From Tanypteryx hageni (Eukaryota; Arthropoda; Insecta; Odonata; Petaluridae), in NCBI GenBank assembly GCA_028673005.1, contig CM054115.1:189538548-189602547 (forward strand): a stretch of 64,000 bases of DNA, read 5' to 3'. The notes beneath the pieces were generated by a model. That model was given only the letters and a program-made list of their open reading frames with translations, made no database searches and was not told the DNA's origin. Both the position numbers and the translations under genes were made by a program. The stretch's first letter is position 1. Each line of letters begins with the position of its first letter. Of the stretch, positions 6,738 through 51,349 are shown piece by piece.

Positions 6738-6980
6738 TTTTCTATTCAAGAACAAGAACTTAAAAATTGTTGTCACGGATATCTCCAATAGACACAACAA
6801 GGTTATAAAAAACCAGATGCGCATTTCGGCAACAAAGCAGCCGTCTTCAGTGGTAATTCACCGAAAATAGATTCTACTTTGTAGCGGAAATGCGCCTTTC
6901 GTTTTTTATAAACTTGTTGTGGCTATTGGAGATACCGTTACAAAAATTTTCTAAGTGCTTATTCTTGAATATTTTCAGTC
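6738..6980 (-). mobile_element. Fold-back (PLE-like) element with hammerhead motif
   Basis: An imperfect inverted repeat: about 6738-6839 pairs with about 6874-6980, and the most similar parts are ATCTCCAATAG...ACAACAAG and its complement. A hammerhead motif lies near the centre on the - strand. There is no open reading frame. The palindromic layout matches the inverted pseudo-LTR arrangement of Penelope-like elements. A target-site duplication could not be fixed with confidence. Confidence 0.6.
6812..6854 (-). ncRNA. Hammerhead ribozyme motif
   Basis: Read on the - strand: ACCA stem I, CTGAAGA core, stem II GGCTGC/GTTGCC with a TTT loop (one U-U mismatch and one G-U pair), GAA, self-complementary stem III ATGCGCAT, cleavage base C, then TGGT closing stem I. 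This fits the hammerhead consensus CUGANGA...GAA-A...U-H. Activity is inferred from the motif only. Confidence 0.7.
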
Positions 6981-7692
6981 TTAGGCCTAGTTCCTTGATT
7001 CCCTGTTGAAGACATTTTCTAGTTTCCTACACAAAAACTTCATGCAATATTCTCTAACACCAACGTTGGTTAAATTTCCTTTTTTGTCCTTATTTTAAAT
7101 ATTTGTTCTATAAAAAGAAAATTAACATTTACAAAATAGTTTGAAACTCAAAACAACGCCAAATGGGCGAAACAGTAGTAGAGTGGGCGTATCTAGAAAA
7201 TAGGGAAGGGGGTTTAAAATTCATAATACAATTTTTAAAAAAGCTAATCATCAAGGATCGTCCATAAAGACTAAAAATTAAAAGTGAAAGGTGGAGAAAT
7301 ACGCGGTGCGAATCACCGCTATATACTGTTAGTTCTTTCGCCGATTTCATGGAAACGGCCAGGGTTTATGAAACTGTCCACTCAGCCCACACTGCGAAGA
7401 TGGGAACGTGCCTCTAGTATGTTCAGAAAACATTAACGCACGCATTATCCAAGAAGTAAAATGTAAATGCACATTAAAAATGACTAATTACTGACTGCTG
7501 GAAGAAATTTAGTGATGGAACGAAAATGAAATCAGAGTAAAAGAAGACAATTTTCGGTCATGGTGATGGTCCAAATCCTCTCCTCCTAGATACGCCACTG
7601 TAATAGAAGTATACGAGCGGAATTACCCGTTGAACATCAACGGGACTTTGTAGTGTGATTAAAATATAACTTCTGAGGTGTGTGTGTAAAAA

Positions 7693-7693
<1 letters not shown>
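6981..7693. other. Non-coding span
   Basis: No gene or recognised repeat is visible. Confidence 0.4.

Positions 7694-7746
<53 letters not shown>
7694..7746. repeat. (TA)n microsatellite
   Basis: An almost pure TA run of about 50 bp, about 100 bp upstream of the LINE 5' region. A similar TA run flanks another LINE copy at 28364-28422. Confidence 0.95.
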
Positions 7747-7753
<7 letters not shown>

Positions 7754-7839
7754 AAGAAACTATCATCAGTGCCTGGCAGTAGGCAGCAGTACTGTCAGTA
7801 TGGTATAGAGCCGAAAACAAATGATGTTGGTTGGGTCTA

Positions 7840-10800
7840 TATCCAATACAGCTGTAGGCGTGATCAGGACGATTTGAACGGCTACAGTACTGCGATGTGG
7901 AAAGCAAGAGGGAAGCTACCACATTACAATCCCTAGTAAAGATTATATGGTTGGACAATATGAGTTCTCTCGAGGTAAAACTATCCGGAGGTAAAATAGT
8001 CCCCCAATCGGATCTCCGGGAGGGGACTGCCTTGAGGAAAACATTTGTCGAAAGTAAATTACGAATAGGGACTTGGAACGTAAGAACTATGAGAAAGGCA
8101 GGAAAGCTAGAGAACTTGAAAGAAGAAATGAGAAGAAATAGAGTCGAAATTATAGGGCTAAGCGAAACTAGATGGGAGGGAGAAGGACAGTTCGACTCGG
8201 AAGAATTCACGGTAGTTTATTCTGGAGGAAATAGTGGGGAAAGGGGAGTAGCTCTGGTACTTAGGAAAGATATGATGAAAAGCGTGACAAAGATAATAGC
8301 AACGAACGATAGACTGATGGCAATAAAGCTAAAAGCAGTCCCAGTGGACATGCTGATAATCCAGGTATATATGCCAACGTCAGCTCATGACGATGAAGAA
8401 ATAGATGAGATCTATGAGCAAATTAATGAAATTTACGAAGAAGACGGAAGAGGAAAGGTAAACTGCATACTAATGGGAAATTGGAACAGCATAGTCGGAG
8501 AAGGACAGGAAGAAAATGTTGTCGTGCAATACGGACTTGGGAAGAGAAATCGAGGAGGGGAGAAACTCGTAGAATTCTGCGTCAATAATGACCTTGTAGT
8601 GACTAATACATGGTTCAAAAACCATAAACGAAGGTTATACACATGGAAAAGCCCAGGATATAGAATGAGATGCCAAATAAATTACATCCTTGTAAAACAA
8701 AGATTCAGGAACAGCATAAAGAACGCCAAGGCATTGCAAGGAGCAGACATTGAATCAGATCACAGCCTTCTAATACTTGACGAGAGTACAAAGCTCAAAC
8801 AAATAAGAAAAACGAGAAGAGAAAGACAGACCTAGGGCCTAAAAAAAAACTGAAAGAAAGGCAGGATGTAGTCAGCATGAAGTTGGAAGATAACCTAAGA
8901 AAGTTGGAAAACAAACCGAAGACCGTTGATATAGAATAAGATGAAATTAAAACCAGTATCAAGGATACCTTGGATAATGAGATTGGAAAACAAGAGAAGA
9001 AAATCAGAAAACCATGGATCAAGAAGGAAATGCTGGAGGAAATGGATGAGAGACGAAAATGGAAAAACGTTAACAGTGAAGAAGGTAGAGCCAACTATAG
9101 GCGTATAAACAATGAGTTGAGAAGGGTAACAGATAAAGCTAGAGAAAATTGGATAAAAGGAAAATGTGATGAAATAGAACAAATGGAGAAGTTAGGACGG
9201 TACGATATGATGTACGCTAGGGCACTGGAATTAGAAGATAAGAAGTCTAATGGAATTTGTGGTAAAGGAATTATGAATACGGATGGAAAGATAGTCTCAG
9301 AAACAAAGGATGTAGCACAGGTATAGGAAGAATACATTAAGGAATTATACAGCAAACAGGCAGGAGCGGCAAAAATAGAACTGGAAGATGAGGAAAACAT
9401 TGAAGAAGACAACTTAGGACCAAGTATTATGGAGAGCGAAGTAGAAAAGGCGATAGTGGAACTAAAGAAGGAGAAAGCCACGGGCAGCGATGGAATACCG
9501 GCTGAGATACTTAAAGTCATAGGATCAGAAGGACTAAAAGCGATCACGAAATTAATTAATAAGATTTACGACACGGGAGAGTGGCCTCAGGATTTCCTAG
9601 AAGTAACAATGATCCCTCTAAAGAAGAAGCCAAAGGCTATGCAGTGTAAAGATTACGGAACGATAAGCCTTCTGTCACACACATCGAAGATCATCACGAG
9701 GATTCTTAATAAGAGGCTGGAGAAAAAGGCGGAAGAAATACTAGGGGAAGATCAATTCGGTTTCAGAAAAGGACGAGGAACTAGAGATGCTATAGGAGTA
9801 GTTAGAATCATATCAGAAAGGGCAATAGAGTACAGTCAAGATATCTGCGCATGTTTCGTAGACTGCCAGAAGGCCTTTGATAGAGTAAATTGGGTAAAGT
9901 TGATAAAGATATAAAGGATATAGGTGTAGACTGGAAAGACACGAGACTGATTAGGAATCTATATGAGAATCAAGTTGTAAAGGTCAGGTTTGAGAATGTG
10001 GACACCTGCGGAATAAATATCGGTAGAGGAGTAAGACAAGGCTGCTCCCTATCGCCAACCCTATTCAATATATATGGAGAAAGTCTAATGCAAGAAGCTT
10101 TAGAAGGCACAGGGGATTTCAAAATTGGAGGAAGGATTATAAGAACAGTAAAATACGCAGATGATCAAGTACTTCTAGCAAGAAAGGAAGAGGAGCTACA
10201 AAAAATGATAAATAGACTAGTGATAACAGGTAGAAAATACGATATGGAAATAAATACAGAAAAATCCAAGGTCATTCGAATATCGGGTAAAGAAGAGAAT
10301 CTGAACATAAGTATTTGGGGAAAGCCATTAGAACAAGTTTCAGAATATAAATACCTTGGAAGTATCATAACACGAGAGGCAAAATGTACGGATGAGATCA
10401 AAACTAGAATAGGAAAAGCAAAAGCGGCTTTCAGGAGAAAGAAACAACTACTTACAGGGAATATAAGGGAAGATATCCGCAAGAAGTTGATAAAATGCTA
10501 CGTATGGAGTATAGCATTTTATGGGGCAGAAACATGGACGCTAAGGAAAAATGACATCAAATACTTGGAAAGCTTTGAAATGTGGACTTGGAGGAGAATG
10601 CTGAAGATAAAATGGACAGATAGGATGAAAAACGATGAAGTGCTACGAAGAATAGGAGAGAAGCGAATGATTATACAGACTATATATACAGAGGAAGGCT
10701 AACTGGGTTGGACATTACCTGAGGAGAGAGAGTATGATTAAAGACATGTTAGAAGGAAAACTAGACGGGAAAAGGGAAAGAGGTAGGAAAAGGTTTCAGC

Positions 10801-10952
10801 TGATAGACGATTTGAAAGGGAAAGAGAGTTATCAAGATATTAAGAGGACAGCGGAAAATAGGAGTATATGGAGAACCAGGTTTAACCAAGAATAATCACG
10901 TACCTGTCTACGGACAGACTACCTATGATGATGATATATATATATATATATA
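7840..10952 (+). mobile_element. RTE-like LINE, near full length, degraded
   Basis: A non-LTR retrotransposon with an AP-like endonuclease followed by a reverse transcriptase. Endonuclease motifs: IGTWNVRTM (about 8070), LSETRW (8160), VYMPT (8370), MGNWNSIVGEG (8476) and ESDHSLL (8754). RT motifs: ATGSDGIPAE (9478), QFGFRKGRGTRDA (9752), FVDCQKAFDRVNW (9858), RQGCSLSPTLFNIY (10036) and YADDQVLLA (10154). The C-terminal YGAETW-type domain is near 10520, with its tail around 10730-10895. The 3' end is a short ATGATG/(AT)n tail, as in RTE-type LINEs. Frames are broken by stops or shifts near 8833, 8938, 9324, 9900 and 10700, so it is dead. The catalytic GDWN aspartate of the endonuclease reads N. 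The 5' region shares CCCCAATCGGATCTCCGGG with the LINE copies at 28.4-32.9 kb. The RTE clade assignment is inferred from motifs. Confidence 0.88.
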
Positions 10953-11102
10953 TTGTAAATGTAATTGTTTGATTAATTAATAAATTTCTGACAATCATTT
11001 AAATTCTCCCAGAAAATGAAGCGCTTAAAATTTATTACATTCTGGCATCAATATACAACTGCATTTGCCACTCTTTGGCTCCGTTATTCTTCCTCTTCGT
11101 AC

Positions 11103-11286
11103 GTTTACTGAATAATAATATTCTTCAATTATTAACGCTGCAATCTATTAAGTTTGACATTGCGCGAAGCGAATAACACAATTCTTTCGTCTATTTGAAG
11201 ACTAAATAGACGCTAATTCAATCGGAGGCAGCAATGTGGGTCGCCTTGGCAACACCCGGAAAGAGTACGAAAAAGCGATAAAATTT
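11103..11286 (+). repeat. Direct repeat, copy 1 (partner 13557-13773)
   Basis: Runs from a GTTTACTGAATAATAATA start through a conserved core GGAGGCAGCAATGTGGGTCG to GATAAAATTT. The partner copy about 2.45 kb away has ~35 bp of extra sequence in its middle. Copy 1 is interrupted by a LINE fragment exactly where the match stops. Confidence 0.85.
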
Positions 11287-15152: not shown

Positions 15153-15410
15153 ATTAGTATTTATCCGTCATATAACGGCCAATACACTAGTTATTAAATA
15201 TTAACAATGAGTGGAGGCTACTGCGACGATATTATAAAGAAAGGAATCAAAAGGTTATGGCGTATGAGTTGATTCCTTTCTTCATGCTATTAAACATTGT
15301 TAAAAGAACGATATGCATTCGTTAAAGTGGCAGTTTTATCGGAAGAACTTTTCCTCTCATAAAAATTGCAATTACAATATTAACTGCATTTTAAAGATAC
15401 AATTAAAGAA

Positions 15411-15599
15411 TGTAAAATAAAGAGACATGTTGTAATTCCACATAAATTTATTTAAAACGGCCTAGGTTTCGTTGCAATGAAACAACCTGACGATGTTGCA
15501 TTGCAACGAAACCTAGGTCGTTTTAAATAAATTTGTGGAATTACGTCTCTTTATTTTACATTATGAAGAAATTCCACCAAGTGACGCCTGAAACCATTG
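15411..15599 (+). mobile_element. Mini fold-back PLE-like element, 12-bp TSD
   Basis: The inverted arms are about 15409-15480 and 15498-15561, followed by an asymmetric tail containing ATTCCACCAAGTGACGCCTG. The element is flanked by the direct repeat ACAATTAAAGAA at 15399-15410 and 15600-15611, a 12-bp target-site duplication. It has no coding capacity and is 189 bp long. Its tail resembles that of the element at 47974-48190, so both belong to one group. Confidence 0.8.
15484..15522 (+). ncRNA. Hammerhead ribozyme motif (best preserved)
   Basis: AAC (stem I), CTGACGA core, one extra T, perfect stem II GTTGC/GCAAC with an ATT loop, GAA, self-complementary stem III ACCTAGGT, cleavage base C, and GTT closing stem I. 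All conserved hammerhead positions are present. The very short stems I and III are typical of minimal PLE hammerheads, which are thought to work as dimers. Confidence 0.82.
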
Positions 15600-15611
15600 A
15601 CAATTAAAGAA

Positions 15612-18066: not shown

Positions 18067-18074
18067 AGGAGTTC

Positions 18075-19091: not shown

Positions 19092-19099
19092 AGGAGTTC

Positions 19100-23009: not shown

Positions 23010-23023
23010 TTATCTTTAGCCGT

Positions 23024-23418
23024 AACAGTAAGTAAGCAAAGCCTCCTTCACCGTAAACAGGAATAGAATACATTCGCACTGCAGGTTGCTGGTAAACACC
23101 GTCGTAGGACCTACATCAAAATGAAACACACAAACATACAACTCCGTCAAAAGGCACTCACCCAGTATACTCGAACCAAAACTTAAACTAGACACTGATG
23201 TTTCGACAGCTAAACTGTCTGTCATCTTCAGTAGTAGTGTGTGAGTGCCTTTCGACGGAGTTGCATGTTCCTGTGCGTGCGTGCGCGTGTGTTGTGTGTA
23301 GGTCTTGCGACGGTGTTTACCAGTACCCTGCAGCGTGAATGTATTCTCTTCCTGTTTACGGCGAAGGAACTTTTGCTTTTTTACTATGGTATTGCTTCAC
23401 CGTGTCTCACATCCCCCT
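23024..23418 (-). mobile_element. Fold-back PLE-like element, 14-bp TSD, no RT
   Basis: The imperfect inverted arms are about 23034-23166 and 23238-23378. They are bracketed by a 14-bp direct repeat TTATCTTTAGCCGT at 23010-23023 and 23419-23432. The TSD length equals that of the RT-bearing PLE 400 bp to the right, although the sequences differ. It is 395 bp with no coding capacity. A hammerhead motif lies at the centre on the - strand. Confidence 0.8.
23187..23235 (-). ncRNA. Hammerhead ribozyme motif
   Basis: On the - strand: ACTA (stem I), CTGAAGA core, extra T, stem II GACAG/CTGTC with a longer loop, GAA, stem III ACA-TCAG-TGT, cleavage base C, and TAGT closing stem I. All conserved core residues are present. 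Unlike the other motifs here, stem III has a true tetraloop. Confidence 0.72.
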
Positions 23419-23932
23419 TTATCTTTAGCCGTGAAATTTTGATGTTAGATATCCACCTTAAGTGTAGATTAGATTGAGAAATAGAGAAGATGACAATTGT
23501 TTGAAATGCCTGGCGCGCAATAACATCCCGTTCACCTTAGTTTATTTGTATCCTTTATTTTTTGTTCTATTTTTACTTTCTCATATACGTAGTATATTGA
23601 GAAAGTATTGTTATCGAGAAAAAATTCGACCTCGAGATTTTGATGGAAATACACGTTTTAGGTGTCCCTGAGTCCATAAAAGTTGATTTCGCCATGCCGT
23701 TTGTCCTTCTGTCTGTTTGCCGTTCTAGGGCCCAAACGCGTACATAAAATCGAATGATATCTCGTATTTATGCAATATATCATCTTTTGCAAACCCTTTT
23801 TTCATAAAAATGATATTGCACAAAAATAATGGGTAGTTTATTCTAGTAGTAATAGATAGTAGCTCAATAACTTTGGCCAAAACTAACTAAGGTGAAATAC
23901 TCCTTTAGCCAAAACAACTAGAGGGCTACAAA

Positions 23933-23973
23933 ACCCAATGCATTTCGCCCACAAGGTGAGCATCGTCAGGGGT
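23933..23973 (-). ncRNA. Hammerhead ribozyme in PLE left repeat
   Basis: On the - strand: ACCC, CTGACGA, extra T, stem II GCTCAC/GTGGGC with a CTT loop, GAA, self-complementary stem III ATGCAT, cleavage base T, GGGT. It mirrors exactly the copy at 25507-25547. Confidence 0.8.
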
Positions 23974-25506
23974 AAAACCTGTTCCAACAGTGACTGGGAG
24001 CCAACTACCAGGTTTGAAACGGAAAGTATTAAGAAGACGACCGAGAAAGAAGTGAAGCGCGGAAAGATTTTTCGGCGTGTGTTTCGTTTAAATCTATCAG
24101 TTTGTATAGGGTCTTGTTGAAATCTGTGTCCGTGTTCATAAGTGTATCGCGGTTTTTGTAAATGTGAAGGTTTTCTAACGAGTTTAGTGAGTTATTGGCT
24201 GAAGTTATCAATGTTAAATCGTTTACGTGTATACTATGACCTGTTTCAAAGATGTGGTTGGCAACGCTTGATTTTTCAAAACGATTATATTTATAGTGAG
24301 CCATGTGTTCCTTGAAGCGTGTTATTAGTTTCCTTCTTGTTTGTCCTATGTACTTTTTGTCACAGTGTGAGCATTGTATTTATAAATACCGGACTTGTTC
24401 AAAGATTCTGTTCTGTCTTTTGTACTGCCCAGTAAATTTTTCAAATTATAAGGATTTGTATATGTTATGGTATAATTCTTATGTTTAAAAATTTTGTTCA
24501 AGCTTCTGTTTAATGGTGGAAAATAAGGCAATTTTACATATTTGTCCTCTTTTTTGTTGTCTAATTTGAGGGAAGTGGCATTGGACAAGGTTTTATTAAA
24601 GTTATGTTTTCTCACTAATTTATTAATTAAATTATTATCGTATCCAAGTTTAGCGGTAATTTGTTTTATGTGTTTGAGTTCCTTTGCATATCTGATTTTA
24701 TTGAGGGGGATGTTACATAATCTGTGTGTTAAAAATTGAAACACAGCTATTTTTTGGTTCATAGGGTGAAAGGAGTTGTTAGGAATGAAGTTATCAGCAT
24801 GTGTAGGTTTTCTAAAAATGTCAAACTCAATGTGTTGTCTATTATTTATGATAAGCAAGTCCAAAAATGGCAAGGTGTTGTTTTCTTGAAGTTCATAAGA
24901 GAACTTAATTGAAGGATATATGTTGTTTAACTGATTAACAAATTCATCTACATTTTGTTTCTTTAAATCAAAGATTGTGAATATGTCATCCACGTACCTC
25001 AACCATATATCTGGAAAGTAATGAAATTTCTTTTGCAATCGTTTTCAAAAGAGGACATGAAAATGTTGGCTAGAAAAGGAGATAGGGGGTTTCCCATAGA
25101 AGTGCCTTGTGTTTGTTTGTTAATTTCATTTTTTAATAGAAAAACGTTCTGTGACATGCATAAATTAGTAAGTTGTAAATATTCGAGAACAATTTCATCT
25201 GAAAAATTTTGTTTTAGTAACAATGATTTTAAAATTTGGGATGTTTCTTACAGAGGTACACTTGGGAAGAGACTTTTAACGTCAAAGGAGACCAAAATCT
25301 CAGACTCTTTTAATATTATGTTAAAAACCGCGATACACTTATGAACACGGACACAGATTTCAACAAGACCCTATACAAACTGACAGATTTAAACGACACA
25401 CACGCCGAAAAATCTTTCCGCGCTTCACTTCTTTCTCGGTCGTCTTCTTAATACTTTCCGTTTCAAACCTGGCAGTTGGCTCCCAGTCACTGCTGGAACA
25501 GGTTTT

Positions 25507-25547
25507 ACCCCTGACGATGCTCACCTTGTGGGCGAAATGCATTGGGT
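25507..25547 (+). ncRNA. Hammerhead ribozyme in PLE right repeat
   Basis: An identical motif on the + strand in the opposite pseudo-LTR, so the element carries two divergently oriented copies. Stem I is ACCC/GGGT and the cleavage base is U. Confidence 0.8.
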
Positions 25548-26422
25548 TTTGTAGCCCTCTAGTTGTTTTGGCTAAAGGAGTATTTCACCTTTGTTATTCT
25601 AGTAGTAGTTTAGAAAACTTTGATTTACTCAAAAATGGCTCCATAGAATCTTTAAAGTCAATCCAATTGTCGAGTCTGATGTCACAAATAATACTGCGTA
25701 AGCCACATTTTTCATAAAATCACCATATGGCGTCGTGCTTTACAATATACGCTAAGCTACCTTACCTAAGCCTTATGACGTCACGCCTCCGCCGCGATCC
25801 ACTCAAAACCTTACTACAGCCTTACGGTTAAATTAAATCGAATGGTATCTCATATTTGTGGGTAATACCATTCATAAAAGACATTCTGAAGAGATGAACG
25901 ATATTGCGCAACAATTAAGGGTACTTTATTCTAAGATATTTGGAAACAAAATTCGATTTAGTGAAATATGGCTATAGGAATTTTGATAAAAATCCATCCA
26001 ATCGTACAACCTGATGTCACAAATAATACTAATTATGCCATATGTCCCAAAAAATTACTAAATATCGACCAGTGGCATTAAAATATATGCTAAGCTACGA
26101 TTAACTTTGATTTATAAGCCTTTTTGTTTTTTAAGCGTACACCGTCGACCAAACGTATATATGTACATGAGAAAGTTTGTGCAATGTATATTGCGCCGTT
26201 TATTTATTTTATTATTATTATTATTATTATTTTATTTATTTTAAAATCAATTTTTAATGATTTTCTAACATTTCATGGGTTGGGATAATGTATCTACATG
26301 GGTCTGGAGATGGTAATTATCAATCGAAACCGCCTCGATTTAGGATTCCCCTTATTTTATGCTTCTCCGTCGATACTTGACTCAGTCGGTGCATACGAGC
26401 TCACCCTGCTATTCCTTCACAG

Positions 26423-28422: not shown

Positions 28423-28426
<4 letters not shown>

Positions 28427-29956
28427 CCAATCGGATCTCCGGGTGGGGACTACCCTAGGGGATGCACAGAGGTAATGTAACATTAATAGGAAAGCAAGTG
28501 GTGAGAAATTAAGAATAGGCACATGGAATGTTAGGACTATGAATTCAGGGGGTAAACTAGAGAACTTAAAAAGGGAAATGAGAAGGAATAATGTAATTAT
28601 AGTAGGTCTTAGTGAAGTTCGGTGGGAAGGAGAAGGTGAGATAAATTCAGACGAATTTAAGATTATTTACTCGGGAGGAGAGAAAAAGGAAAGGGGAGTG
28701 GGGATTATAATGAGAAAAGAGATAGCTGAAAGAATTATCAAGGTAGTGACAGTTAATGATAGATTAATAGACATAAAACTTCAGATGGAGCCAGTGGAAA
28801 TGCTTATAATTCAAGTGTATATGCCAACAACTAATGCTGGCGACGACGAAGTAGATGAAATCTATGAACAGATTATGGAGGTATTGGAAGAGGAGGGAAA
28901 AGGAAGGATCACCACCATAGTAATGGGAGATTGGAACAGTGTAGTCGGAGAGGGACAGGAAGATAACATAGTGGGAAAATATGGACTAGGGAAGAGAAAT
29001 GAAAGAGGGGAAAAACTTGTGGAATTCTGCCATAGAAATAGATTGATTGTAACTAATACATAGTTTAAGCATCACCAGTGGAGACTTTACACATGGAGAA
29101 GCCCAGGAGACCAGAGACGATACCAGATAGATTACATACTAGTCAATGAAAGATTTAGAAATAGCATTAAAAATGTGAAAACACCACCAGAGGCAGATAT
29201 TGATTCCGACCACAACCTTTTGGTGGCAAATACACAATGTAGACTGAAGAGCATTATGAGAAACATAAGAGTTAACAAGAAATGGAACTTAGAGGAACTC
29301 CTTAAAAACAAGGAGGCTATCATGACTGAGCTGGAGGAAAGGTTGGGGGAGAGAGCTGAAGAAAATAGGAAGAATGTAGATGAGGAGTGGCGATACATCC
29401 ATAGCAACATTAAAGATGTAATGGAAAAGAAGGTAGGATAGATAACGGGTGAAAGAAACAATAAACCCTGGATCACAGCAGCCATGCTGCAAAAAATGGA
29501 AGAGCGGAGAAAGTGGAAGAACATAAACACTGAAGAAGGCCAAAGAAAGTACAAGGAGTTAAATAATGCCTTAAGAAGGGAAACAGATAAAGCCAGAGAA
29601 CAGTGGATAAATGAGAAATGCGAGGAGATTGTCGAATGTGAAAGAATTTGTAGAACAGACCTCATGTATAGCAAAGCAAGGGAACTATTCAAGAAAAAGG
29701 CAAGAAAGATAGGACGTAAAGGAATCATGAAAAAAGTGGTAAAATAGTATCGGAGACAGACAATGTAAAGAATGTCTGGAAAGAATACGTTGAGGTTCTG
29801 TATGACAAAGAAGGAAGGCCAAGAAATATTGAATTAAATGAAAAAGAGGATGTGGAAAAAGATCAGCTAGGACCAAGTATTCTCGAGTCTGAAGTTAAAA
29901 GAGCAATTGATGACATGAAAAGAAGGAAGGCTGTTGGGAGTGATGAATATACCCAT
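28423..29956 (+). mobile_element. LINE 5' segment, left arm of a large palindrome
   Basis: The 5' part of the LINE family: LRIGTWNVRTM-like start (28509), LSEVRWEGEG, MGDWNSVVGEG with intact aspartate, and DSDHNLL. A stop near 29062 interrupts the endonuclease, and further stops follow near 29441 and 29747. It ends abruptly at RKAVGSDEYTH. All of it reappears in inverted orientation at 31373-32902. Mirrored frame coordinates always sum to 61,329, so the arms have no net indels over about 1,530 bp, and the conceptual proteins are identical. Confidence 0.93.
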
Positions 29957-32940
29957 CATGCTTCTGTCCGAAGACAGGTTTTAACTGAATCGCTGCCTCC
30001 ATTTCTCTCTCTCCCTAGAAGCCTCTTTTATATCTCTATAAGTATTATATCCCTGCTTTATATTATCTAATATTCCTATTCTTTTTCTCCCTCTTCCTCT
30101 TCTTCCACTAATTTTTCCTTCTAAGATCGTCCTTTGTAAACACTGTCTTCTCGATATGTGCCCTATCCAATTTGCTTTTCTTTTCCTGATTGTTTTATTA
30201 GCATCCTTTCTTCTCCCACCATTTCTAATACTTCTTCATTTCTCTTCCTCTCTGTCCATTTCACTTTCATCATTCTCCTCCATACCCACATCTCAAAACT
30301 TTCTAAATATTTTTCCTCCTTTCTCCTTACCCTCCACGTCTCTGCACCATAAAGAGCTATGCTCCATATGTAGCATTTTGCTAATTTCTTCCTTGTTTCT
30401 AAATTTAATTTCTTGCTTGCGAGAAGCTCCTTCTTCTCGTTAAATGCTGCTTTTGCCATTGCAATCCTACTTCTGATGTCCTGTGTACTACTTCCATCCT
30501 GCGCTAAAATACTGCCAAGATATTTGAAACTACATACTTGTTCCAATTTTTGTCCATTTACCATTATATTTAATTCTTTATGTTCCTTTGAAACCACCAT
30601 GACTTTCGTTTTTTCAGCATTGATCTTCATTCCATATTGTTGGCCAACCTCCACTAGTCTGTCTGTCATCCTCTGAAGCTCTTTCTCGTCTTCTGCTATT
30701 AATCCTTGATCATCTGCGTATTTAATGGTGGTAATACTTTCACCTCCTATCTTAAATCCTTTCTCTTCCCTCAACGCTTCTTCTGTTATTGTTTCTGCAT
30801 AAATATTAAATATCGCTGGTAAAATAGGACATCCCTGCCTCACTCCCCTCCCTATTGAAGTACTTTCTGTTTCTTCTCCTTCAACCCTGACTCTAATCTT
30901 TTGATCAAAGTAAAGGTTTTTAAGCAATCTTTTATCTTTCCAATCTATTCCTATTGTGTTTAAAATACCCAGCATTTTATCCCATTTCACTCGGTCAAAA
31001 GCTTTCTCCCAATCTACAAAACAAAAATAAATACCTATATTGACGTCTAGCGCTCTTTCTATCATCATTTTCATATATCCTATAGCATCTCTAGTCCCCC
31101 TTCCTCTTCTGAAACCAAACTGATTATCTTGCAGCTCCTTTTCTATTTTACATTCAATTCTTTTGGTTATTATTCTGGTTAGAACTTTAGCTGTATGAGA
31201 AATTAAACTAATTGTTCTGTAATCCTTACAACATTTTGCATTGTTCTTTTTCTCCAGTGGTACCATAACAACATCTAAAAAATCTTCAGGCCATATGCCA
31301 GTATCATATACTTGGTTAAAAAATTTTGTGAGTTGCTTAACTGCTTTAGACCCCAAAACCTTAAGAACGTCCATGGGTATATTCATCACTCCCAACAGCC
31401 TTCCTTCTTTTCATGTCATCAATTGCTCTTTTAACTTCAGACTCGAGAATACTTGGTCCTAGCTGATCTTTTTCCACATCCTCTTTTTCATTTAATTCAA
31501 TATTTCTTGGCCTTCCTTCTTTGTCATACAGAACCTCAACGTATTCTTTCCAGACATTCTTTACATTGTCTGTCTCCGATACTATTTTACCACTTTTTTC
31601 ATGATTCCTTTACGTCCTATCTTTCTTGCCTTTTTCTTGAATAGTTCCCTTGCTTTGCTATACATGAGGTCTGTTCTACAAATTCTTTCACATTCGACAA
31701 TCTCCTCGCATTTCTCATTTATCCACTGTTCTCTGGCTTTATCTGTTTCCCTTCTTAAGGCATTATTTAACTCCTTGTACTTTCTTTGGCCTTCTTCAGT
31801 GTTTATGTTCTTCCACTTTCTCCGCTCTTCCATTTTTTGCAGCATGGCTGCTGTGATCCAGGGTTTATTGTTTCTTTCACCCGTTATCTATCCTACCTTC
31901 TTTTCCATTACATCTTTAATGTTGCTATGGATGTATCGCCACTCCTCATCTACATTCTTCCTATTTTCTTCAGCTCTCTCCCCCAACCTTTCCTCCAGCT
32001 CAGTCATGATAGCCTCCTTGTTTTTAAGGAGTTCCTCTAAGTTCCATTTCTTGTTAACTCTTATGTTTCTCATAATGCTCTTCAGTCTACATTGTGTATT
32101 TGCCACCAAAAGGTTGTGGTCGGAATCAATATCTGCCTCTGGTGGTGTTTTCACATTTTTAATGCTATTTCTAAATCTTTCATTGACTAGTATGTAATCT
32201 ATCTGGTATCGTCTCTGGTCTCCTGGGCTTCTCCATGTGTAAAGTCTCCACTGGTGATGCTTAAACTATGTATTAGTTACAATCAATCTATTTCTATGGC
32301 AGAATTCCACAAGTTTTTCCCCTCTTTCATTTCTCTTCCCTAGTCCATATTTTCCCACTATGTTATCTTCCTGTCCCTCTCCGACTACACTGTTCCAATC
32401 TCCCATTACTATGGTGGTGATCCTTCCTTTTCCCTCCTCTTCCAATACCTCCATAATCTGTTCATAGATTTCATCTACTTCGTCGTCGCCAGCATTAGTT
32501 GTTGGCATATACACTTGAATTATAAGCATTTCCACTGGCTCCATCTGAAGTTTTATGTCTATTAATCTATCATTAACTGTCACTACCTTGATAATTCTTT
32601 CAGCTATCTCTTTTCTCATTATAATCCCCACTCCCCTTTCCTTTTTCTCTCCTCCCGAGTAAATAATCTTAAATTCGTCTGAATTTATCTCACCTTCTCC
32701 TTCCCACCGAACTTCACTAAGACCTACTATAATTACATTATTCCTTCTCATTTCCCTTTTTAAGTTCTCTAGTTTACCCCCTGAATTCATAGTCCTAACA
32801 TTCCATGTGCCTATTCTTAATTTCTCACCACTTGCTTTCCTATTAATGTTACATTACCTCTGTGCATCCCCTAGGGTAGTCCCCACCCGGAGATCCGATT
32901 GGTGGACTATTTTACTCCAGAAAGATCCATAGAGGTATTT
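29957..32940 (-). mobile_element. LINE, near full length, right arm of palindrome
   Basis: A - strand copy of the same LINE. The endonuclease half (32902 to 31373) is the mirror of the left arm and shares its stops. The RT half is an open frame at 30163-31395 with QFGFRRGRGTRDA, FVDWEKAFDRVKW, RQGCPILPAIFNIY, catalytic KYADDQGLIA and C-terminal YGAETWRVRRK and WVWRRMMKVKW. The 5' leader continues to about 32940 (GTAAAATAGTCC, as in the LINE at 7.8 kb). The 3' end (ACCTGTCTTCGGACAG...CATGATG) lies at 29957, tail-to-tail with the truncated left arm. Broken frames in the endonuclease and around 31395 make it inactive. Confidence 0.92.
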
Positions 32941-37718: not shown

Positions 37719-37876
37719 TTAAAGCTAGAGCCGATATATCGGCACCTTGAGCGTCTAAGGGATAATATATTGGAGGGGGCCCATGTGAGTGCATTGCCCC
37801 AGGGCCCCACCTGCTCTTAATCCATCCCTGCTCGCAGGCCTGATCTAGCCCATGGGTCGTAGTTTGCCCACCCCTG

Positions 37877-44290: not shown

Positions 44291-45490
44291 ATGAGTGGAC
44301 ATATTAATGGGTTGCAGAGTAAAGTTATCGAGGCCTATCCTTTAGCAATATTTACGCATTGCTACGCTCACGTTTTGAACTTAGTTCTGAAGCAAATCCT
44401 CTTGAATATCAAGGAATGTAGATTGTTTTTCCAAACTATCAGTGGATTGGCAGCATATTTTTCTAAATCATCGAAAAGAGTAAATGCTTTGCAAGATTTT
44501 GTTGCTAAAAAATTACCCTCCATCGCACCAACCAGATGGAATTTTACTTCCCGTTTATCAAACCCAGTAAAACGCCACAGAAGTCAACTTATTGCATTTT
44601 TTGAACACATTGTGGAGAATTCTGGGGATTGGGACGTGGATGCTGTAATCAAAGCTCGTGGTTTTCTGTATTTCTTGCAAGATTTTCAAAAAAAATTTTT
44701 GCTAGAAATTTTTTATGTTCTGTTTGGCTATATTGATGTTTTGAATAATATATTGCAAACATCATCCTATGACATATTGTACTGTTGTAAAAAAGTGCAT
44801 GATACTATGAAATAGCTTAGGAATGACAAGGAACATGGGTTTGATGATATTTGGGTTTCTGCAAAGGAAAAGCATACGGTTGAGTCGTCGAAGCCTAAAA
44901 GACGAAAAGGATCTATAGAAGAGGAGAAGAGCGCGTGCCTTCGATTATACCAGAGAATAGTCGACTGCATGTGCCTGGAGATGGAAGAAAGATACTCTTC
45001 ACTTTCGAAACTTGAGTTTTTTCAACTCCTTTGTAGCGAAAGATATGATCAGTATGCGAAAACTTTTCCTGATGGTATTCTAGAAAAATTAAAGGATTTC
45101 TACGGACCAGTTTTTGACTACGCTCGCCTAAAAAATGAACTAAAAGTGCTCTTTTCTTCTGATGAATTTGCGAGGAAACCAGTGCATCACCTATTAAAAT
45201 TCATGCAAGAAAATCAGCTTCAGGTTGCATTCAAGGAGATTTATAAATTAGCGGAACTTATCATGACGATTCCGAGTTCTACTGCTACAGTCGAGCGTTC
45301 TTTTTCGGCTATGAAGAGAATACATACGTGTTATATAGGAACACAAACACAGGAAAGGTTATGCGGCCTAAGTTCACTCGCCATTGAAAAGACATTGCTG
45401 GTGGAACTGAAGAAAAGACCTTCATTTTATGATGATGTGCTAACAAAATTCCTAAAGCAAAACAGGAGATTGGAACTGGTGTATAAATAA
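44291..45490 (+). pseudogene. hAT transposase, ZMYM1-like, 5'-truncated with one stop
   Basis: The frame opens at SGHINGLQSKVIEAYPLA with the hallmark THCYAHVLNLVLKQ (RNase H-like hAT domain, DUF4371 type), followed by APTRWNFTSRL. It ends with a hAT dimerisation domain, IPSSTATVERSFSAMKRIHT then LCGLSSLAIEK. Only one in-frame TAG (44813-44815, after HDTMK) interrupts about 400 codons; reading continues in the same frame to TAA at 45488. The N-terminal part with the zinc finger and first catalytic Asp is absent. A probable right terminus of the element is the CGACGCCACTG string ending at 45971. The single stop and lack of frameshifts suggest a fairly young copy. Confidence 0.85.
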
Positions 45491-45989
45491 GTAAGTAAAA
45501 TGAGTTTTTTAAGCCTTTCTTTGATTCAATCCGGAAAATAATATTTTCCCAAGTGATTACTTTTTCAGATTTCTGTGCGTATTATATGGTTGTACATATT
45601 TAAAAATCGTAACAAAACACAGATAATTCGTACCTCACTCTAGTATCTTCTCACAACGAAGCGTTAACCATTCTCACATAAACGGTGCGCATGATGCATA
45701 GCTCAAGTCTATTTGACGGGGAACCTTTGTGTTGTCCATAATTATGGATTGTATAGTTAAAATCATATCAGTTAGTAAATTAAAGTATTCAAAATTATTC
45801 TAAGATTAATTGCATTAGACCAATTAAGAAGAGCGCTCTCTTAAAACTTTCACACGTCGATAAAAATGCAATCGTACGTTCAAATTAACACGTGAATTTT
45901 GTAGCGCGGGTTGCATAACCCCCCTCCCCAATAAAAGCACACCCAACCTAAATGGGCACGCGACGCCACTGAACAGCACACTTATTTTT

Positions 45990-47734
45990 CCCAACTTGAA
46001 ATGGCACACTGGGGTCTCTCAGACCCCATGAAGATTCGGTGTCCTGTAAATTTACAGTTAGCCAATGAAGAACATACATTTAATTTATCTGACATTTGTA
46101 AACATATCAACAAGAATAAACACTTAAAACAGCGAAATTAACAATATTTTTTTAAATAAAAATAAAATCTTTTTTTGAGGCCAGGTTGATTTTTCAAATG
46201 TTTATTGATTTCACAAAATTATTGCACACAATAAAATTGACCAAAAGCTATAAAGCATACATTTTTTTAATTCTAAAGAAACACATCATTATCTGTAAAA
46301 ATACAGTGGAGTCTTGTTCATAAGAAGTAGGTTTGTCAGAGCTTCGAATTTGGTGAATTCACTGCCCACATTCCACACAAAGGATTGCTCTGTGATCATT
46401 ACACATGGGTTTCTTACACACATTACCAATTAATTTTGTTTTTCGGTCCTTTGTGCGATCATAGTAGAAACACCTAATTTTTTTATTCCAAGTAATTGGG
46501 GTTTCTTGGGGTGATGACGTTGCTCCTAAAAGCTCTTCGATCCTGACCTTCAACGATCTCCTCAAGGATGTTGACTGTAATCTAGCCTTCAAGTGGGGTT
46601 CAATCATGGAATACCCTAGTTCAAAAAGAAAATCTTTCCTTTTAATTGGTTTTTGCCAATTCTTTAAAGTATATAACACCATGGCATTAATTCCACACTG
46701 ATCCAGCATTCCAAAGAAGAACCTAAGGGGCCAAAGATTGGTTTTTCTGGCAGTTGTGTATGTGTGGCATAACTGATCAAAAGAATCAGACCCCTTACCC
46801 ACATAAGGAATTGCATTTACCATATAAAATGTCTTCGCATCATTCAGGCTCACGATCTTCATCCCATATTTATCTGGTTTCGAAGGTATATACATTCTGA
46901 AAGCACAGCATCCCCTGTAGTTCAAAACCTGCTCATCAATAGTCAAATATTCAAAAGGAGAATACAATTCCTGCCACTTAGCAATAAATATTAGCCAAAT
47001 CTCATGGATGGGAGCGAGCTTGTCATGCTGTTGCCGTTCTTGGCGAACTAATTTGGGGCCAGATAAGTGAGTAATAATGTTTTTTTTTCTTACCTCGACC
47101 TCTTTTTGAAGGGACATCTACACTCCATTTGTACTGGTTCTTTCCCCTCAACATAGCGGTCTTTTTCTTTTTCAAGGGTGGTTCAATTTCTACCTTTTCT
47201 TCCTCCACATCTTCTTCCGTGTCTGAGCAATCCTGATAGTTGTCAAAACCGGGCTCTTCACTCTCGATTTCACTATCTTCTCGACCAAATATCTCAGGGG
47301 TTTCCTTTTCTTCTTCATCCAACTCGAAGAGCGCTCTCCGAATCTCCTCAGGATCAGTATAACGGGGCTTGGTTTGGTTGACAATCGAAGTCATAATGCT
47401 AAAATAATATAGAGATGTATTTTCATGAAAAATACTGTCAAGGAAGCGATTAATTTATCTGAACTGACGAAAAGTGTTAAAAAATTTATTACTCACTGAC
47501 TGGATAATTGCACTCAATCCAGCACACTGGGGTCTCCCAGACCCCAAATGATATGCAGCTCCTCTCAGCACGGCAACCAGACTTCTACTGGCCTGGCTGA
47601 GGATCTCGATTTACAGAGAGATAGTTACATTTTATTTACATGAAGACACAGTGCAATCACAACAATGAAACTCAGAAATGAAACAAAGTTAAAGACCGGT
47701 GGAGTCTGAGAGACCCCAGTGTGCTGTTGCAGGG
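45990..47734 (-). mobile_element. piggyBac element with palindromic TIRs
   Basis: The right end is AGGG followed by TTAA (47735-47738). The left end starts CCCAACTT at 45990 after TTTT, a decayed TTAA. Both ends hold GCACACTGGGGTCTCTCAGA in inverted orientation (46004 and 47704-47724), and a third copy lies inside at 47521-47546. The motif GGGGTCT-CTC-AGACCCC is itself a hairpin. Internal repeats at unequal spacing from the two ends are usual for piggyBac. Confidence 0.85.
46359..47394 (-). pseudogene. piggyBac transposase (PGBD-like), deleted and frameshifted
   Basis: The start ATG is at 47394. The acidic N-terminal region (DEEEKETPEIFG) is followed by a basic KRGRGKKKKH stretch, where a frameshift in an A-run (about 47083-47090) moves to the second frame. 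This has HLSGPKLVRQERQQ, then DKLAPIHEIW, LTIDEQVLNYRGCCAFRMYI (first catalytic Asp), PSKPDKYGMK, and after VGKG directly SDSFDQLCHTYTTARKTNLW. The DNWFTS-type segment with the second Asp is therefore missing. A second deletion probably lies before DKLAPI. The C-terminal Cys-rich finger is kept (CFYYD, CKKPMC, CVECGQ). It cannot be catalytic. Confidence 0.88.
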
Positions 47735-47738
47735 TTAA

Positions 47739-47961
47739 TAGGAAATAGGGAGTTTAGGTTCTTGGATCTCATATTCTAAACATTTTTTTAGAATATTGTT
47801 TTGACCGGTATTTAAATACGTAAAATAATACCGTATTCACTAGCATAATCCCATAATTCTCAAATAGTATTTAAAATATTAAATAAAAATATTAATCGTA
47901 TTTTTTGCAATTTATTTATCCATCTCAGACCCAGAATAAGTATAACAAGTGGCATAAGCAA
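47739..47961. other. Short spacer
   Basis: AT-rich sequence between the piggyBac and the fold-back element; nothing recognised. Confidence 0.4.
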
Positions 47962-48021
47962 ATAAAATGCCTTCATTGAAAAAAGACGAACTTTGTATTT
48001 CCACAAAATTTTTAATTTAAA

Positions 48022-48059
48022 CACCACCGGTTTCACTACGATCATAGCATCATCAGGTG
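48022..48059 (-). ncRNA. Hammerhead motif with mutated cleavage base
   Basis: On the - strand: CAC, CTGATGA, stem II GCTA/TAGT, GAA, ACCGGT, then G, GTG. The core is kept but the cleavage position is G instead of A/C/U, which should abolish self-cleavage. The opposite arm has C there. Confidence 0.65.
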
Positions 48060-48061
48060 AT

Positions 48062-48099
48062 CACCTGATGATACTACAATCGCAGTGAAACCGGTCGTG
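48062..48099 (+). ncRNA. Hammerhead ribozyme motif
   Basis: CAC (stem I), CTGATGA, extra T, stem II ACTAC/GCAGT with one A-C mismatch and an AATC loop, GAA, self-complementary ACCGGT, cleavage base C, GTG. Confidence 0.75.
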
Positions 48100-48202
48100 T
48101 TTAAATTAAAATTTTGTGAAAATACAATACCAAGTTCGTCTTTTTTCAATATGAGTAAATTCCACCGAGTTGAGCCTGACCTCATTAATGATAAAATGCC
48201 TT

Positions 48203-48545
48203 TAGTTTAGCGAATTAAAAGGAACTTGATGATGTCATAAATTGGGGAAGCAGTCACCATGGCCCACCGACGCAGCATATACGTCCTATTTTATTTTTTG
48301 GAATTCCGTACTGATTTCACTTGTAGTACAAAATAATGACATTTTCCATATTATTTATGTATAATATATCTGCCATATAACAAAAAATTTCAACACAGGG
48401 AGATGGGATTGTCATGTTTTAGAGGTGGTCCCAAAAGTGTTCAAGGTGACTTATGCATCACGATACACAATAGCCTTAATTACTTAACATGCAATTTAAT
48501 TCTCAGAAGTGTAATTTAACATTCTTATTCATGCCAACCTGTTTT
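48203..48545. other. Span without recognised feature
   Basis: No gene or repeat identified. Confidence 0.4.
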
Positions 48546-48770
48546 CCAGAAATTCAAAGAGAATGCCATGTCACCACATGAAGCATGCTTTAAGACATGA
48601 GATTTTTCCAGAAATTCAAAGAGCCATGCTATGTCGCTACAAGGAGCATGCTTTAAACCATGAGATTTTTCCAGAAATTAAAAGACATGCAATGTCACCA
48701 CATGGAGCATGCTTTAAATCATGGGATTTTCCAGAAATTCAAAGAGCATGCACTGTCGCAGGATTGTCCT
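48546..48770. repeat. ~62-bp minisatellite, about 3.5 copies
   Basis: Units begin CCAGAAATTCAAAGA at 48546, 48608, 48671 and 48731 (periods 62, 63, 60) and share GGAGCATGCTTTAAA and CATGAGATTTTT. A 76-codon frame over it is a by-product of the repeat. Confidence 0.92.
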
Positions 48771-49290
48771 TCCTAGTGGGTAACTCCACGTAACTCTGAC
48801 CCCCACTCCGACTATCGTGGTCCAAAAACCTTCAGAAAAGCAAGAGAAAATGTGAGATAAAGTTTACAATGCAGCACAAAAAGAATTAACAACAACAGAC
48901 AGGCAAAGACCAAAAATTAATCCATATAATCCATTGTTTAATCACCAATTTAATCATTATCAGAGCCCAACCTAGTAATCAACATAGTATTCAAGAACCA
49001 ACACATTATTCAAAAAAGTACACACTTTCAATTAGTTCTTCTATAGTGGAAGAGATTATTCATCGTGTGGTGCTTCTCTGATCTGTAAACAAAATGTGCA
49101 AGTATGGCAATGAAAAAGTTCTGAACTTCATCAAAGATTAACGTGAACATCCCATTTTGCATTGTGTAGTTAATAAGTATTATAAAAACAAACTCATAAA
49201 AGCTGATACATATAAAAAATTATGCGAGAAGTACAACTCCTCAGAAAAGAGCAGTAAGTAACTTCTTGTTTAAAATCCTTCTATATATCA
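48771..49290. other. Span without recognised feature
   Basis: No gene or repeat identified. Confidence 0.4.
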
Positions 49291-50170
49291 TATCTGCCCG
49301 AATACAAGCCGATGTTTTTTGTCAAAATCTACCATGAAAAAATCACCCCCGGCTTAAATGAGAGTCCAAGAAAAAATTTGGGGTTAAGGTTACTTCTCGT
49401 AGTCACCCATACATCTCTCATTGCCATCACGTTCAATTGATAGTACTATATTTTTAGTAAAGTAATTATTTGACCTACAATGAGCATTAATAATTAAATA
49501 ATAAAGCTAGAACACTGAATTTAGCAGTACCCATGTTTTGTTGGTTGTTACCTATTCTTTCACTTCTAAATGCTATAGGATATTTTCTTTCATTTCTCAG
49601 GGCTATGCATATGTATCATTAAGAAGTTTGCAATTTGTATTATTTTTCATTATCCATTAAAAGAAGTTCCTATTAGTTTTACTTGGCTATTCTAGTTATT
49701 GCTACAGCCATTATAATGTTTGTATGCATGTTAAAACCTCATTCAAAGAATCTATTAAAATTGCATACATTGACTACACAGACGATTATGTAAAATGCGA
49801 TGACAGCTTTTGATGATCAACTGTTTGAATTTCGGTAAAACTTTACATGGAACATGTATAATTATAAAAATGCAATTTCTTAAGGCATTGTAAATGCTAA
49901 TTTCATTGAAAATAAACTTGGATGAAAAATTATGTTGGCGAGATTGCTATTGTATTATTTCACTTTTTATGAAAAGAAAGATAAATGAAATTATCGTCAC
50001 TGAATGTGGAACATTATTCAACAATGCAAAATTATTAATTGGAGTAATATTTCAAAATGTCAACAACTAAACCATTTCCTAGTCCTTTCTTCGATCTCGA
50101 AATCTACAAAATTTACTTTGTCAAAAAATTGCGGAAATATTTTGGGGGTTGGCTTCTATTCGGGCAGATA
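49291..50170. mobile_element. TIR MITE (TATCTGCCCGAATA ends)
   Basis: The left end TATCTGCCCGAATACAAGCC and right end GGCTTCTATTCGGGCAGATA are inverted repeats with one mismatch, starting with TA as in Tc1/mariner or pogo-like elements. The 880-bp interior has no transposase. Confidence 0.75.
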
Positions 50171-51130
50171 CAGTGAACAAATATTACCATTTTCTTTCAC
50201 ATGCGATTGTCGCACATTAATAAGCATGCAGCAGTAGCATGCTAATAAAAAACCACTTAAATGTACCTCAAGTTACAGTAAAAGTTGACACTAACAACCT
50301 TTATGTTAAATGACTCTAAAATAAAAATATCTACCTACCAACATCAACAATGAATCAAAGCCTTCATTGTTGACATAACTTAAGAGCAAAACATTGTAAG
50401 GCAAGCTTTTGAATAAAGGTAAGTAATATTGTCGATTATGTCCATCAAATCTTATTCAGTAGAGATGTTTTACTTAAAACAAATTGTTTTAACTCATCTC
50501 TGGCTACAGTTGAAGAAAAAATAAACTATGTTTTGTGGCTAGCCAAGCTGAAATCTGTTACAGCCAAGAGACACAAGTTTCAGACATTATAACGAATATC
50601 CACCTTCTCAACATGCAATAAGACTGGATTAAAAAATCTAATGTGGCCACCATATGACTTTCTCCATACCTGTTATATTTCTCAAGATTCCAAATAGGTA
50701 AAATAATAATAAATATTTTAAGGAACTGCGTGAAAAATTTAAAAATTTACCAAGAACAGAAATAGACTCATACCGTAGCCTTCTGATATTTGATATAGCC
50801 AGGAATCTCCAGCAATTAAGAAAATAAAAAGGAATGTTACTAAGACATAACTAAGCATCAATTGTTAACAATAGTCGCCGGTAGGTGGTGGCAGCTAAAA
50901 AATTAGTTTTTAAAATATCTCTTAAACAATGCATTATATGGAAAATGTTTCAAACTAAGGTTGTAGAAAATTAAATTTCCTACGACATTTATTCCAATAT
51001 TTTTTACATTAATCGAATATTAAAGCAAATATTTCGAAAAAATGGATAAGTGACAAGAGTCACCCACTTCTGGTTGACTGATCTTTACCAAAAACTAATC
51101 AGTTCTTGAAACTGTCATAAAATGGTTAAA
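50171..51130. other. Span without recognised feature
   Basis: AT-rich; no gene or repeat identified. Confidence 0.4.
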
Positions 51131-51145
51131 CAAAATGTGGCATTG

Positions 51146-51334
51146 CTTGTGGAGGTTTTCGGGTTTCGCTGCGTTGGCGGCATTTCTGGCTCTCGACGTT
51201 TCGCAGACATTGCAGTCTGCATCTGCATCTGATGATGCAGACTGCAATGTCTGCAAAACGTCGAGAGCCAGAAATGCCGCCAACGCAGCGAAAACCTCCA
51301 CCAGCATTCAGCAACGCTGCGAAAGCCTTCAACT
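51146..51334 (+). mobile_element. Mini fold-back PLE-like element, 15-bp TSD
   Basis: The arms (about 51151-51223 and 51232-51297) are highly similar inverted repeats, GC-richer than their surroundings (GCGTTGGCGGCATTTCTGGC and its complement), followed by a ~37-bp tail. The TSD CAAAATGTGGCATTG is at 51131-51145 and 51335-51349. It is 189 bp, the same length as the element at 15411-15599. The central hammerhead-like motif is degenerate. Confidence 0.8.
51226..51266 (+). ncRNA. Degenerate hammerhead-like motif
   Basis: CTGATGA, extra T, strong stem II GCAGAC/GTCTGC, then AAA instead of GAA, ACGT stem III and C. Stem I is not visible. The opposite arm keeps GAAACGTC but has lost CTGANGA. Neither should cleave. 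Confidence 0.5.
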
Positions 51335-51349
51335 CAAAATGTGGCATTG

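What the first reader, a model, noticed from the sequence alone, without database searches (positions are those of the whole stretch)
6738..51349. A cluster of palindromic, RT-less elements carrying hammerhead-ribozyme motifs
Seen: five short fold-backs (about 6738-6980, 15411-15599, 23024-23418, 47974-48190, 51146-51334) plus one RT-bearing PLE. Four of the short ones have 12, 14, 12 and 15-bp target duplications, close to the PLE's 14 bp. Five of the six loci keep a recognisable hammerhead core (CUGANGA, extra base, stem II, GAA, short stem III, H, stem I), although sequences differ between loci; the sixth (51.2 kb) is degenerate. In most, stem III is self-complementary (ACCTAGGT, ATGCAT, ATGCGCAT, ACCGGT, ACGT). 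Known: Penelope-like elements carry minimal hammerheads, and retrozymes are small tandem-hammerhead elements. Inference: these palindromes are a non-autonomous, inverted (not tandem) counterpart mobilised by PLE RT plus GIY-YIG.
Basis: partly seen in the sequence, partly recalled or inferred. Interest (0 to 1): 0.9.

Follow-up and report, generated by a model that had tools for sequence, protein, structure and literature searches.

The report
Twin-primed Penelope hairpin insertions
The short hairpin-like repeats in this genome are small inserts of a known class of jumping gene (Penelope-like elements), apparently made when its enzyme copies the start of its own messenger RNA onto both cut DNA strands and joins the two copies, so each one records how this poorly understood jumping gene inserts itself.

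Summary
Observation confirmed and sharpened. All six loci, the RT-bearing PLE included, are single inserts with exact 12-15-bp target duplications and one 31-40-nt one-sided tail. A hammerhead descriptor hits four of the six (5 hits; 0.01 expected); Rfam models do not. Two palindrome families have 1,366 and 2,321 first-look candidates genome-wide, 40 scored each. They are not an inherited palindromic family: 72 sampled copies show 70 different centres, and left and right arms are not separate lineages. In 72 of 72, one arm ends 37-44 nt inside an ORF-like tail and the other at its ATG. In some inserts each arm holds sequence that the other lacks, which excludes self-copying. The same arm-plus-tail lies downstream of PLE RT/GIY-YIG frames, with a TATA box about 30 bp before the arm's usual inner end. 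Best reading: both nicked strands prime reverse transcription near the 5' end of PLE mRNA, at two adjacent internal sites, and the two run-off cDNAs are joined. No RNA data; the ribozyme's role is open.

The parts
6745..7009 (-). palindromic PLE insert (family e6738); 12-bp TSD at 6733-6744 and 7010-7021; tail 6970-7009; arms 81% complementary
6816..6850 (-). hammerhead core, stem I ACCA/TGGT, stem III ATGCGCAT, one extra base before stem II
15411..15599 (+). palindromic PLE insert (family f1); 12-bp TSD at 15399-15410 and 15600-15611; tail 15561-15599 reads MKKFHQVTPETI from ATG (by eye); 1,366 first-look candidates genome-wide, 40 scored
15487..15519 (+). hammerhead core, stem III ACCTAGGT
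23024..23418 (+). palindromic PLE insert (family e23024); 14-bp TSD at 23010-23023 and 23419-23432; tail 23386-23418; 67 nt between the arms hold a degenerate hammerhead that by orientation belongs to the left (no-tail) arm only
   Evidence: orientation read by eye
23852..25593 (-). RT/EN-bearing PLE copy (family p), 5'-truncated, with outer inverted arms of 274 nt (98%); 14-bp TSD at 23838-23851 and 25594-25607; tail 23852-23888 on the left end only
24346..25044 (-). frame with RT motif YVDD and the GIY of the endonuclease; the next frame (24202-24379) reads KKYIGQTRRK, GIY-YIG E 0.011, below Pfam's cut-off
23937..23969 (-). hammerhead core in the tail arm of the PLE
25511..25543 (+). hammerhead core in the no-tail arm of the PLE
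47974..48190 (+). palindromic PLE insert (family f2); 12-bp TSD at 47962-47973 and 48191-48202; tail 48151-48190; ATG frame reads MSKFHRVEPDLIND (by eye); 2,321 first-look candidates genome-wide, 40 scored
48065..48096 (+). hammerhead core, stem III ACCGGT
51146..51335 (+). palindromic PLE insert (family e51146); TSD of 14-15 bp at 51131/51132-51145 and 51335/51336-51349; tail 51305-51335; hammerhead degenerate (GAA lost in the right arm, kept in the left; by eye)

Best explanation
Each palindrome is a twin-primed PLE insertion. Shown: single insertion events (12-15-bp duplications in the window); one outer end 37-44 nt inside an ORF-like tail (site A), the other at its ATG (site B); arms that in most copies reach a fixed inner point; variable joins; inserts whose arms cannot be copies of each other; the same arm next to RT/GIY-YIG frames of PLEs in this genome. 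Inferred: the PLE protein, probably a dimer, cuts both strands about 12-15 bp apart. Each 3' end primes reverse transcription inside the PLE mRNA near its 5' end, one at A and one at B. Each cDNA runs off at the capped 5' end, which starts at the first bases of the hammerhead. The two cDNA 3' ends are joined by end joining. Monomeric mRNA so yields a short ORF-less palindrome; read-through or tandem RNA yields copies that hold RT and EN. Also inferred: the hammerhead acts only in read-through RNA, which has the stem I 5' strand that RNA starting at +1 lacks.
For: Six of six window inserts have a TSD and one tail, the other end having 0-3 unmatched bases. f1/f2: 44 of 60 loci (3 of them probable duplicates) share 8 nt or more at the two ends, against 84 of 1,740 mispaired controls. 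Site B at -3 to +6 of the ATG and site A at +37 to +44 in 72 of 72 (the reference ends at +44); no second tail above score 30 in 80 of 80. Inner ends: at least one arm within 1 nt of the same point in 56 of 72, both in 11; tail arm at that point in 26, no-tail arm in 28. Each arm has what the other lacks in L082 (no-tail arm of about 2.1 kb with RT and EN frames, tail arm about 40 nt, 12-bp TSD), L049 and window 23024-23418, the last two read by eye. Left arms are not a lineage: mean distances f1 LL .063, RR .055, LR .060; f2 .065.076.071 (29 and 28 copies). PLE partner: of 20 half-unit f1 loci fetched, 5 were followed upstream; RT or GIY-YIG frames seen in 5 of 5, tblastn hit in 4 of 5; endonuclease-end-like frames upstream of f2 in L110 and L111. 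TATAAA first T at -30 or -31 in 12 of 20 f1 loci, TAAAAA in 2 more (L087 was not placed by the script). Single-arm inserts L083, L088, L108 and L112 start at or within 3 nt of that point, by eye. In vitro, Anolis PAc cuts and extends both strands and starts internally at two sites that bound the tail (PMC11167929, main text read).
Against: At subfamily-diagnostic columns the two arms nearly always agree (f1 two columns F .91-.92, f2 seven columns F .72-.92), and within-copy arm distance (.053.052) is lower than in all 2,000 random pairings: single-template copying would also give this. L021 is the clearest mixed copy. The PAc study reports no difference in start site between strands, so a strict A/B pairing is not predicted by it. 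The queries held some tail, so B/B inserts would be missed; A/A would not. Among the 40 best half-unit places only 12 (f1) and 16 (f2) show an inverted match in the table, so palindromes are not the only product. No RNA 5'-end data. RNA folds are no better than shuffles (z -0.29 to -1.35).
Confidence: 0.8

Rival explanations
1. Self-priming: one cDNA (or one antisense RNA) folds back and copies itself, as proposed for Adineta vaga Penelope.
For: Proposed from palindromes at inverted junctions (PMC3846280, passages). Arms of a copy share subfamily variants.
Against: A self-copy cannot hold sequence absent from its template, but in L082, L049 and window 23024-23418 each arm does. In 72 of 72 the second arm stops at site B and lacks the tail. 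Tail arm and no-tail arm reach the inner point about equally often (26 and 28 of 72).
Confidence: 0.08
2. A non-autonomous family whose palindromic RNA is transcribed and retrotransposed as a unit.
For: High copy number, uniform length, TSDs.
Against: 70 different centres in 72 copies (later mutation inflates this, and 2 pairs of f2 copies share a short centre); left and right arms do not form lineages; most other variants occur in one arm only.
Confidence: 0.06
3. Fold-back or MITE-type DNA transposons that happen to hold hammerhead-like motifs.
For: Inverted arms and TSDs.
Against: One-sided tail, variable centres, arm shared with loci that carry RT/EN frames.
Confidence: 0.02
4. Two successive or nested single-arm insertions at one site.
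For: Single-arm inserts exist (L083, L088, L112).
Against: One TSD surrounds the whole insert in the window, and the A/B pairing holds in 72 of 72. I did not test centres for a TSD.
Confidence: 0.02

Closest known systems
Penelope-like elements (Penelope/Poseidon clade) with an inverted pLTR
   Same: RT plus GIY-YIG, pLTR, one tail of about 30-40 nt that continues the ORF start, short TSD, inverted pLTR shorter than the direct one (A. vaga Pen2a: 31-bp tail, inverted copy 37 bp shorter, 9-bp TSD; PMC3846280, passages)
   Different: Here the whole-unit copies sampled hold no ORF, only two pLTR cDNAs, in high copy; unequal arms point to two independent initiations
PAc, Anolis Poseidon, in vitro system
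   Same: Internal initiation at two adjacent sites in the start of the ORF, both strands cut and extended, hammerhead at the ORF start (PMC11167929, main text)
   Different: Genomic record rather than assay; a one-A-one-B pairing per insert, which the assay did not report
Metazoan non-LTR retrozymes
   Same: Small, RT-less, hammerhead-bearing, PLE suggested as helper (PMC7761336 and PMC7229834, passages)
   Different: Retrozymes are tandem repeats with canonical type I hammerheads and circular RNAs; these are inverted pairs with minimal hammerheads; L018 alone shows a partial tandem among the 60 first copies
LINE-1 twin priming
   Same: Two primings and an inversion inside one TSD (recalled; start of the abstract of PMC2837659 seen in the listing)
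   Different: Here both primings use the same RNA region near the 5' end, so the product is a palindrome

Membership tests
Penelope-like element (source of the inserts) | RT with YxDD and GIY-YIG endonuclease in one element | tested here: met
   By motif: YVDD and GIY/YIG in the window PLE and in frames upstream of f1. Library support is weak: Pfam GIY-YIG only E 0.011, below cut-off; no Pfam or NCBIfam match on the 232-aa frame
Penelope-like element (source of the inserts) | pLTR, one-sided tail, short TSD | tested here: met
Penelope-like element (source of the inserts) | minimal type I hammerhead in the pLTR | tested here: met
   by motif only; Rfam models silent; cleavage not testable here
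Penelope-like element (source of the inserts) | RT falls in the PLE clade of a tree | not tested
   protein database switched off; no tree built
Metazoan retrozyme | tandem head-to-tail hammerhead units | tested here: not met
   inverted pairs in the 60 whole-unit copies; L018 alone has a partial tandem
Metazoan retrozyme | circular RNA intermediate | not testable with these tools
   no RNA data
Inherited non-autonomous palindromic element | copies share centre and arm mismatches | tested here: not met
MITE / fold-back transposon | matching terminal inverted repeats at both ends | tested here: not met
   one end carries 31-44 nt that the other lacks

The most novel reading that the evidence does not exclude
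PLE integration is an obligately asymmetric two-primer reaction: in each insertion one DNA strand starts cDNA at site A and the other at site B of 5'-proximal PLE RNA, so an ORF-less palindrome is the default product of monomeric mRNA, while the hammerhead (complete only in read-through RNA) serves the rarer tandem route that carries the ORF.
Probability: 0.45. Interest if true: 0.78.

Novelty: new variant of a known kind. Interest (0 to 1): 0.62.

Why it matters
How PLEs insert, why they carry inverted pLTRs and tails, and why they keep a hammerhead are open questions. These inserts are a large natural record of the reaction: they place two start sites and a likely transcript 5' end, argue against self-priming, and make the two-strand model directly testable. 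They also warn annotators that short palindromes of this kind can be PLE products rather than MITEs or retrozymes.

Tried and rejected
Rfam RF00008 over the whole genome and all Rfam over the window or pieces: no hammerhead; the control genomes did not ring either, so that answer is uninformative. A hammerhead descriptor without an extra base gave no hit. RNA folding gave no support beyond shuffles. Region L081 was fetched on the wrong side of the L035 PLE because I took genome-search loci to be re-oriented; they are not. PDB, NCBIfam and Pfam searches of the PLE frames: no match, apart from the weak GIY-YIG. L044 and L022, relatives of two other window families, gave no TSD of 9 nt or more. 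The script stopped with an error at its last line, after the results had been printed. In one search the script failed to place L087. Rejected: self-priming, inherited palindrome, MITE, nested insertion (see rivals). Not reached: genome-wide searches with the other three families (one was asked, unanswered) and with the PLE protein; a count of B/B inserts; the organism's name. Literature: ten searches; in the titles and abstract starts listed I saw no account of ORF-less inverted-pLTR pairs as a class, which says nothing beyond those listings. Short non-autonomous Penelope elements are mentioned in butterflies (PMC6685494, passages), inverted pLTRs in a curation guide (PMC8969392, passages), small RNAs from Penelope inverted repeats in D. 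virilis (PMC3136932, passages); PMC12910113 passages added nothing.
Full report
WHAT IS THERE. The window lies in a 1.68-Gb genome (organism not named). Six loci carry an insert flanked by an exact 12-15-bp target duplication: five short palindromes and one PLE copy. In each, one outer end carries 31-40 nt that the other end lacks; the other end has 0-3 unmatched bases. That one-sided piece matches what is called the tail in the Penelope literature (PMC3846280, passages; PMC11167929, main text).

HAMMERHEADS. Stems differ in sequence between the families but stay complementary (by eye). Of the 60 f1/f2 copies, 24 keep a descriptor match, as expected for decaying inserts. Rfam models see none of them.

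COPIES. With whole palindromes as queries, f1 gave 1,366 and f2 2,321 first-look candidates, of which 40 each were scored; candidates are not confirmed copies. Of the 60 copies fetched at first, all 60 have one tail, and 44 share 8 nt or more between the two ends, against 84 of 1,740 mispaired controls. With 20 further copies, none of 80 has a second tail (score above 30). I dropped 8 rows as probable segmental duplicates, judged by near-identical sequence or closely spaced places, leaving 72 (38 f1, 34 f2).

NOT AN INHERITED PALINDROME. The 72 copies have 70 different centres (later mutation adds to this number, and two f2 pairs share a short centre). The two arms overlap in 20, meet flush in 13 and have extra bases in 39. 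Left arms are not nearer to left arms than to right arms: f1 LL .063, RR .055, LR .060, f2 .065.076.071. Arms of the same copy are somewhat closer.053 and .052, below all 2,000 random pairings. An allele table shows why: two f1 and seven f2 diagnostic columns agree between the arms of a copy (F .72 to .92), while most other minor variants occur in one arm only. So the palindrome forms at insertion, mostly from RNA of one subfamily; L021 has arms of two subfamilies at both f1 diagnostic columns.

TWO START SITES. In 72 of 72 the no-tail arm ends within -3 to +6 nt of the ATG that opens the tail, and the tail arm ends 37-44 nt past it, the reference itself stopping at 44. The tails of f1, f2 and the 23.0-kb element read MKKFHQVTPETI, MSKFHRVEPDLI and MVLLHRVSHPP from that ATG (by eye; f1 also), which fits a PLE ORF start, as reported for A. 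vaga, where pLTR and tail together hold the first 22 codons.

TWO INDEPENDENT cDNAs. In L082 (TSD AATGATTTGTGA) the no-tail arm is about 2.1 kb long and holds pLTR, endonuclease and RT frames, while the tail arm is little more than the tail. The window PLE is the reverse: long tail arm, 274-nt no-tail arm. In L049 and in window 23024-23418 the no-tail arm holds hammerhead sequence that the tail arm lacks (by eye; the window element is old, its arms 85% alike at best). Neither arm can be a copy of the other in these. Among f1/f2 the no-tail arm is longer by 7 nt or more in 9 of 72, the tail arm in 11 of 72, and they are within 2 nt in 27.

THE PARTNER AND THE 5' END. A query with half the unit found, among its 40 best places, 12 with an inverted match in the table for f1 and 16 for f2 (six of them probably one duplicated insert). 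Of 28 such places fetched (20 f1, 8 f2), 6 show an inverted arm within the stretch fetched (score above 50), and many run on upstream; a distant inverted arm would not be seen. I followed 5 of the 20 f1 loci further: RT or GIY-YIG frames of one PLE family lie upstream in 5 of 5, and tblastn with the window PLE hits 4 of 5; the fifth (L107) is judged by eye. For f2, L110 and L111 show a frame like the endonuclease's C-terminal end. TATAAA begins 30-31 nt before the base at which palindrome arms usually end in 12 of the 20 f1 loci (one near-identical pair among them, L089/L090), and TAAAAA in 2 more; TATA runs lie between -35 and -25 in 4 of 8 f2 loci. Single-arm inserts begin at or near that base too (L083 with a duplication of 11 nt or more, L088, L112, and L108 within 3 nt; by eye). 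I infer that this is the transcript start, and that each arm is a run-off cDNA from an internal start near the ORF's beginning to the cap.

MECHANISM AND LIMITS. The steps fit the PAc biochemistry: both strands cut and extended, internal starts at two sites that bound the tail, unprocessed RNA used (PMC11167929). New here are the one-A-one-B pairing in every palindrome sampled, the unequal arms, and the coincidence of inner ends with a TATA-spaced site. Not shown: whether one or two RNA molecules are used, any RNA end, any ribozyme cleavage, the joining enzyme. Upstream RNA can pair with the stem I 3' strand in a folded 115-nt stretch, which RNA starting at the inferred +1 cannot do, but the fold energies are ordinary.

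ASCERTAINMENT. All copies were best matches to queries from this window, so they are skewed to young and similar copies, and the queries held some tail: B/B inserts would be missed, A/A inserts would not. f1 and f2 are themselves related (69% over 120 columns), so they are not fully independent families.

Noticed in passing
28423-32906: Two 1,534-nt arms, 100% complementary, 1,416 nt apart, made of LINE-like endonuclease/RT frames: a very recent large inverted duplication of a LINE, or an assembly feature.
   Followed up: no
51722-52943: Inverted ends of 76 nt (86%) 1,070 nt apart with a second inner inverted pair, close to the 51.2-kb palindrome: possible non-autonomous DNA transposon.
   Followed up: no
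46359-47117: Frame with a DDE_Tnp_1_7 match, E 3e-17; piggyBac-type by recall.
   Followed up: no
44816-45490 and 56860-58272: hAT dimerisation domain, and a BED zinc-finger frame with a below-cut-off DUF659 match: two hAT-like transposon remnants.
   Followed up: no
L018 1501-1790: One f1 insert carries arm-tail followed directly by a second hammerhead-arm-tail in head-to-tail order, the only partial tandem seen among the 60 first copies.
   Followed up: partly
L016/L017/L061 and L035/L036/L037: Same insert repeated at about 88-kb (C9) and 16.8-kb (C3) spacing: probable segmental duplications that inflate copy counts.
   Followed up: partly
L001, L009, L014, L016, L029, L063, L065 arms: A short AC-rich stretch (ACAACAAG) of the f1 arm has recurrent small deletions that differ between the two arms of a copy: slippage during reverse transcription, or later loss.
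   Followed up: no
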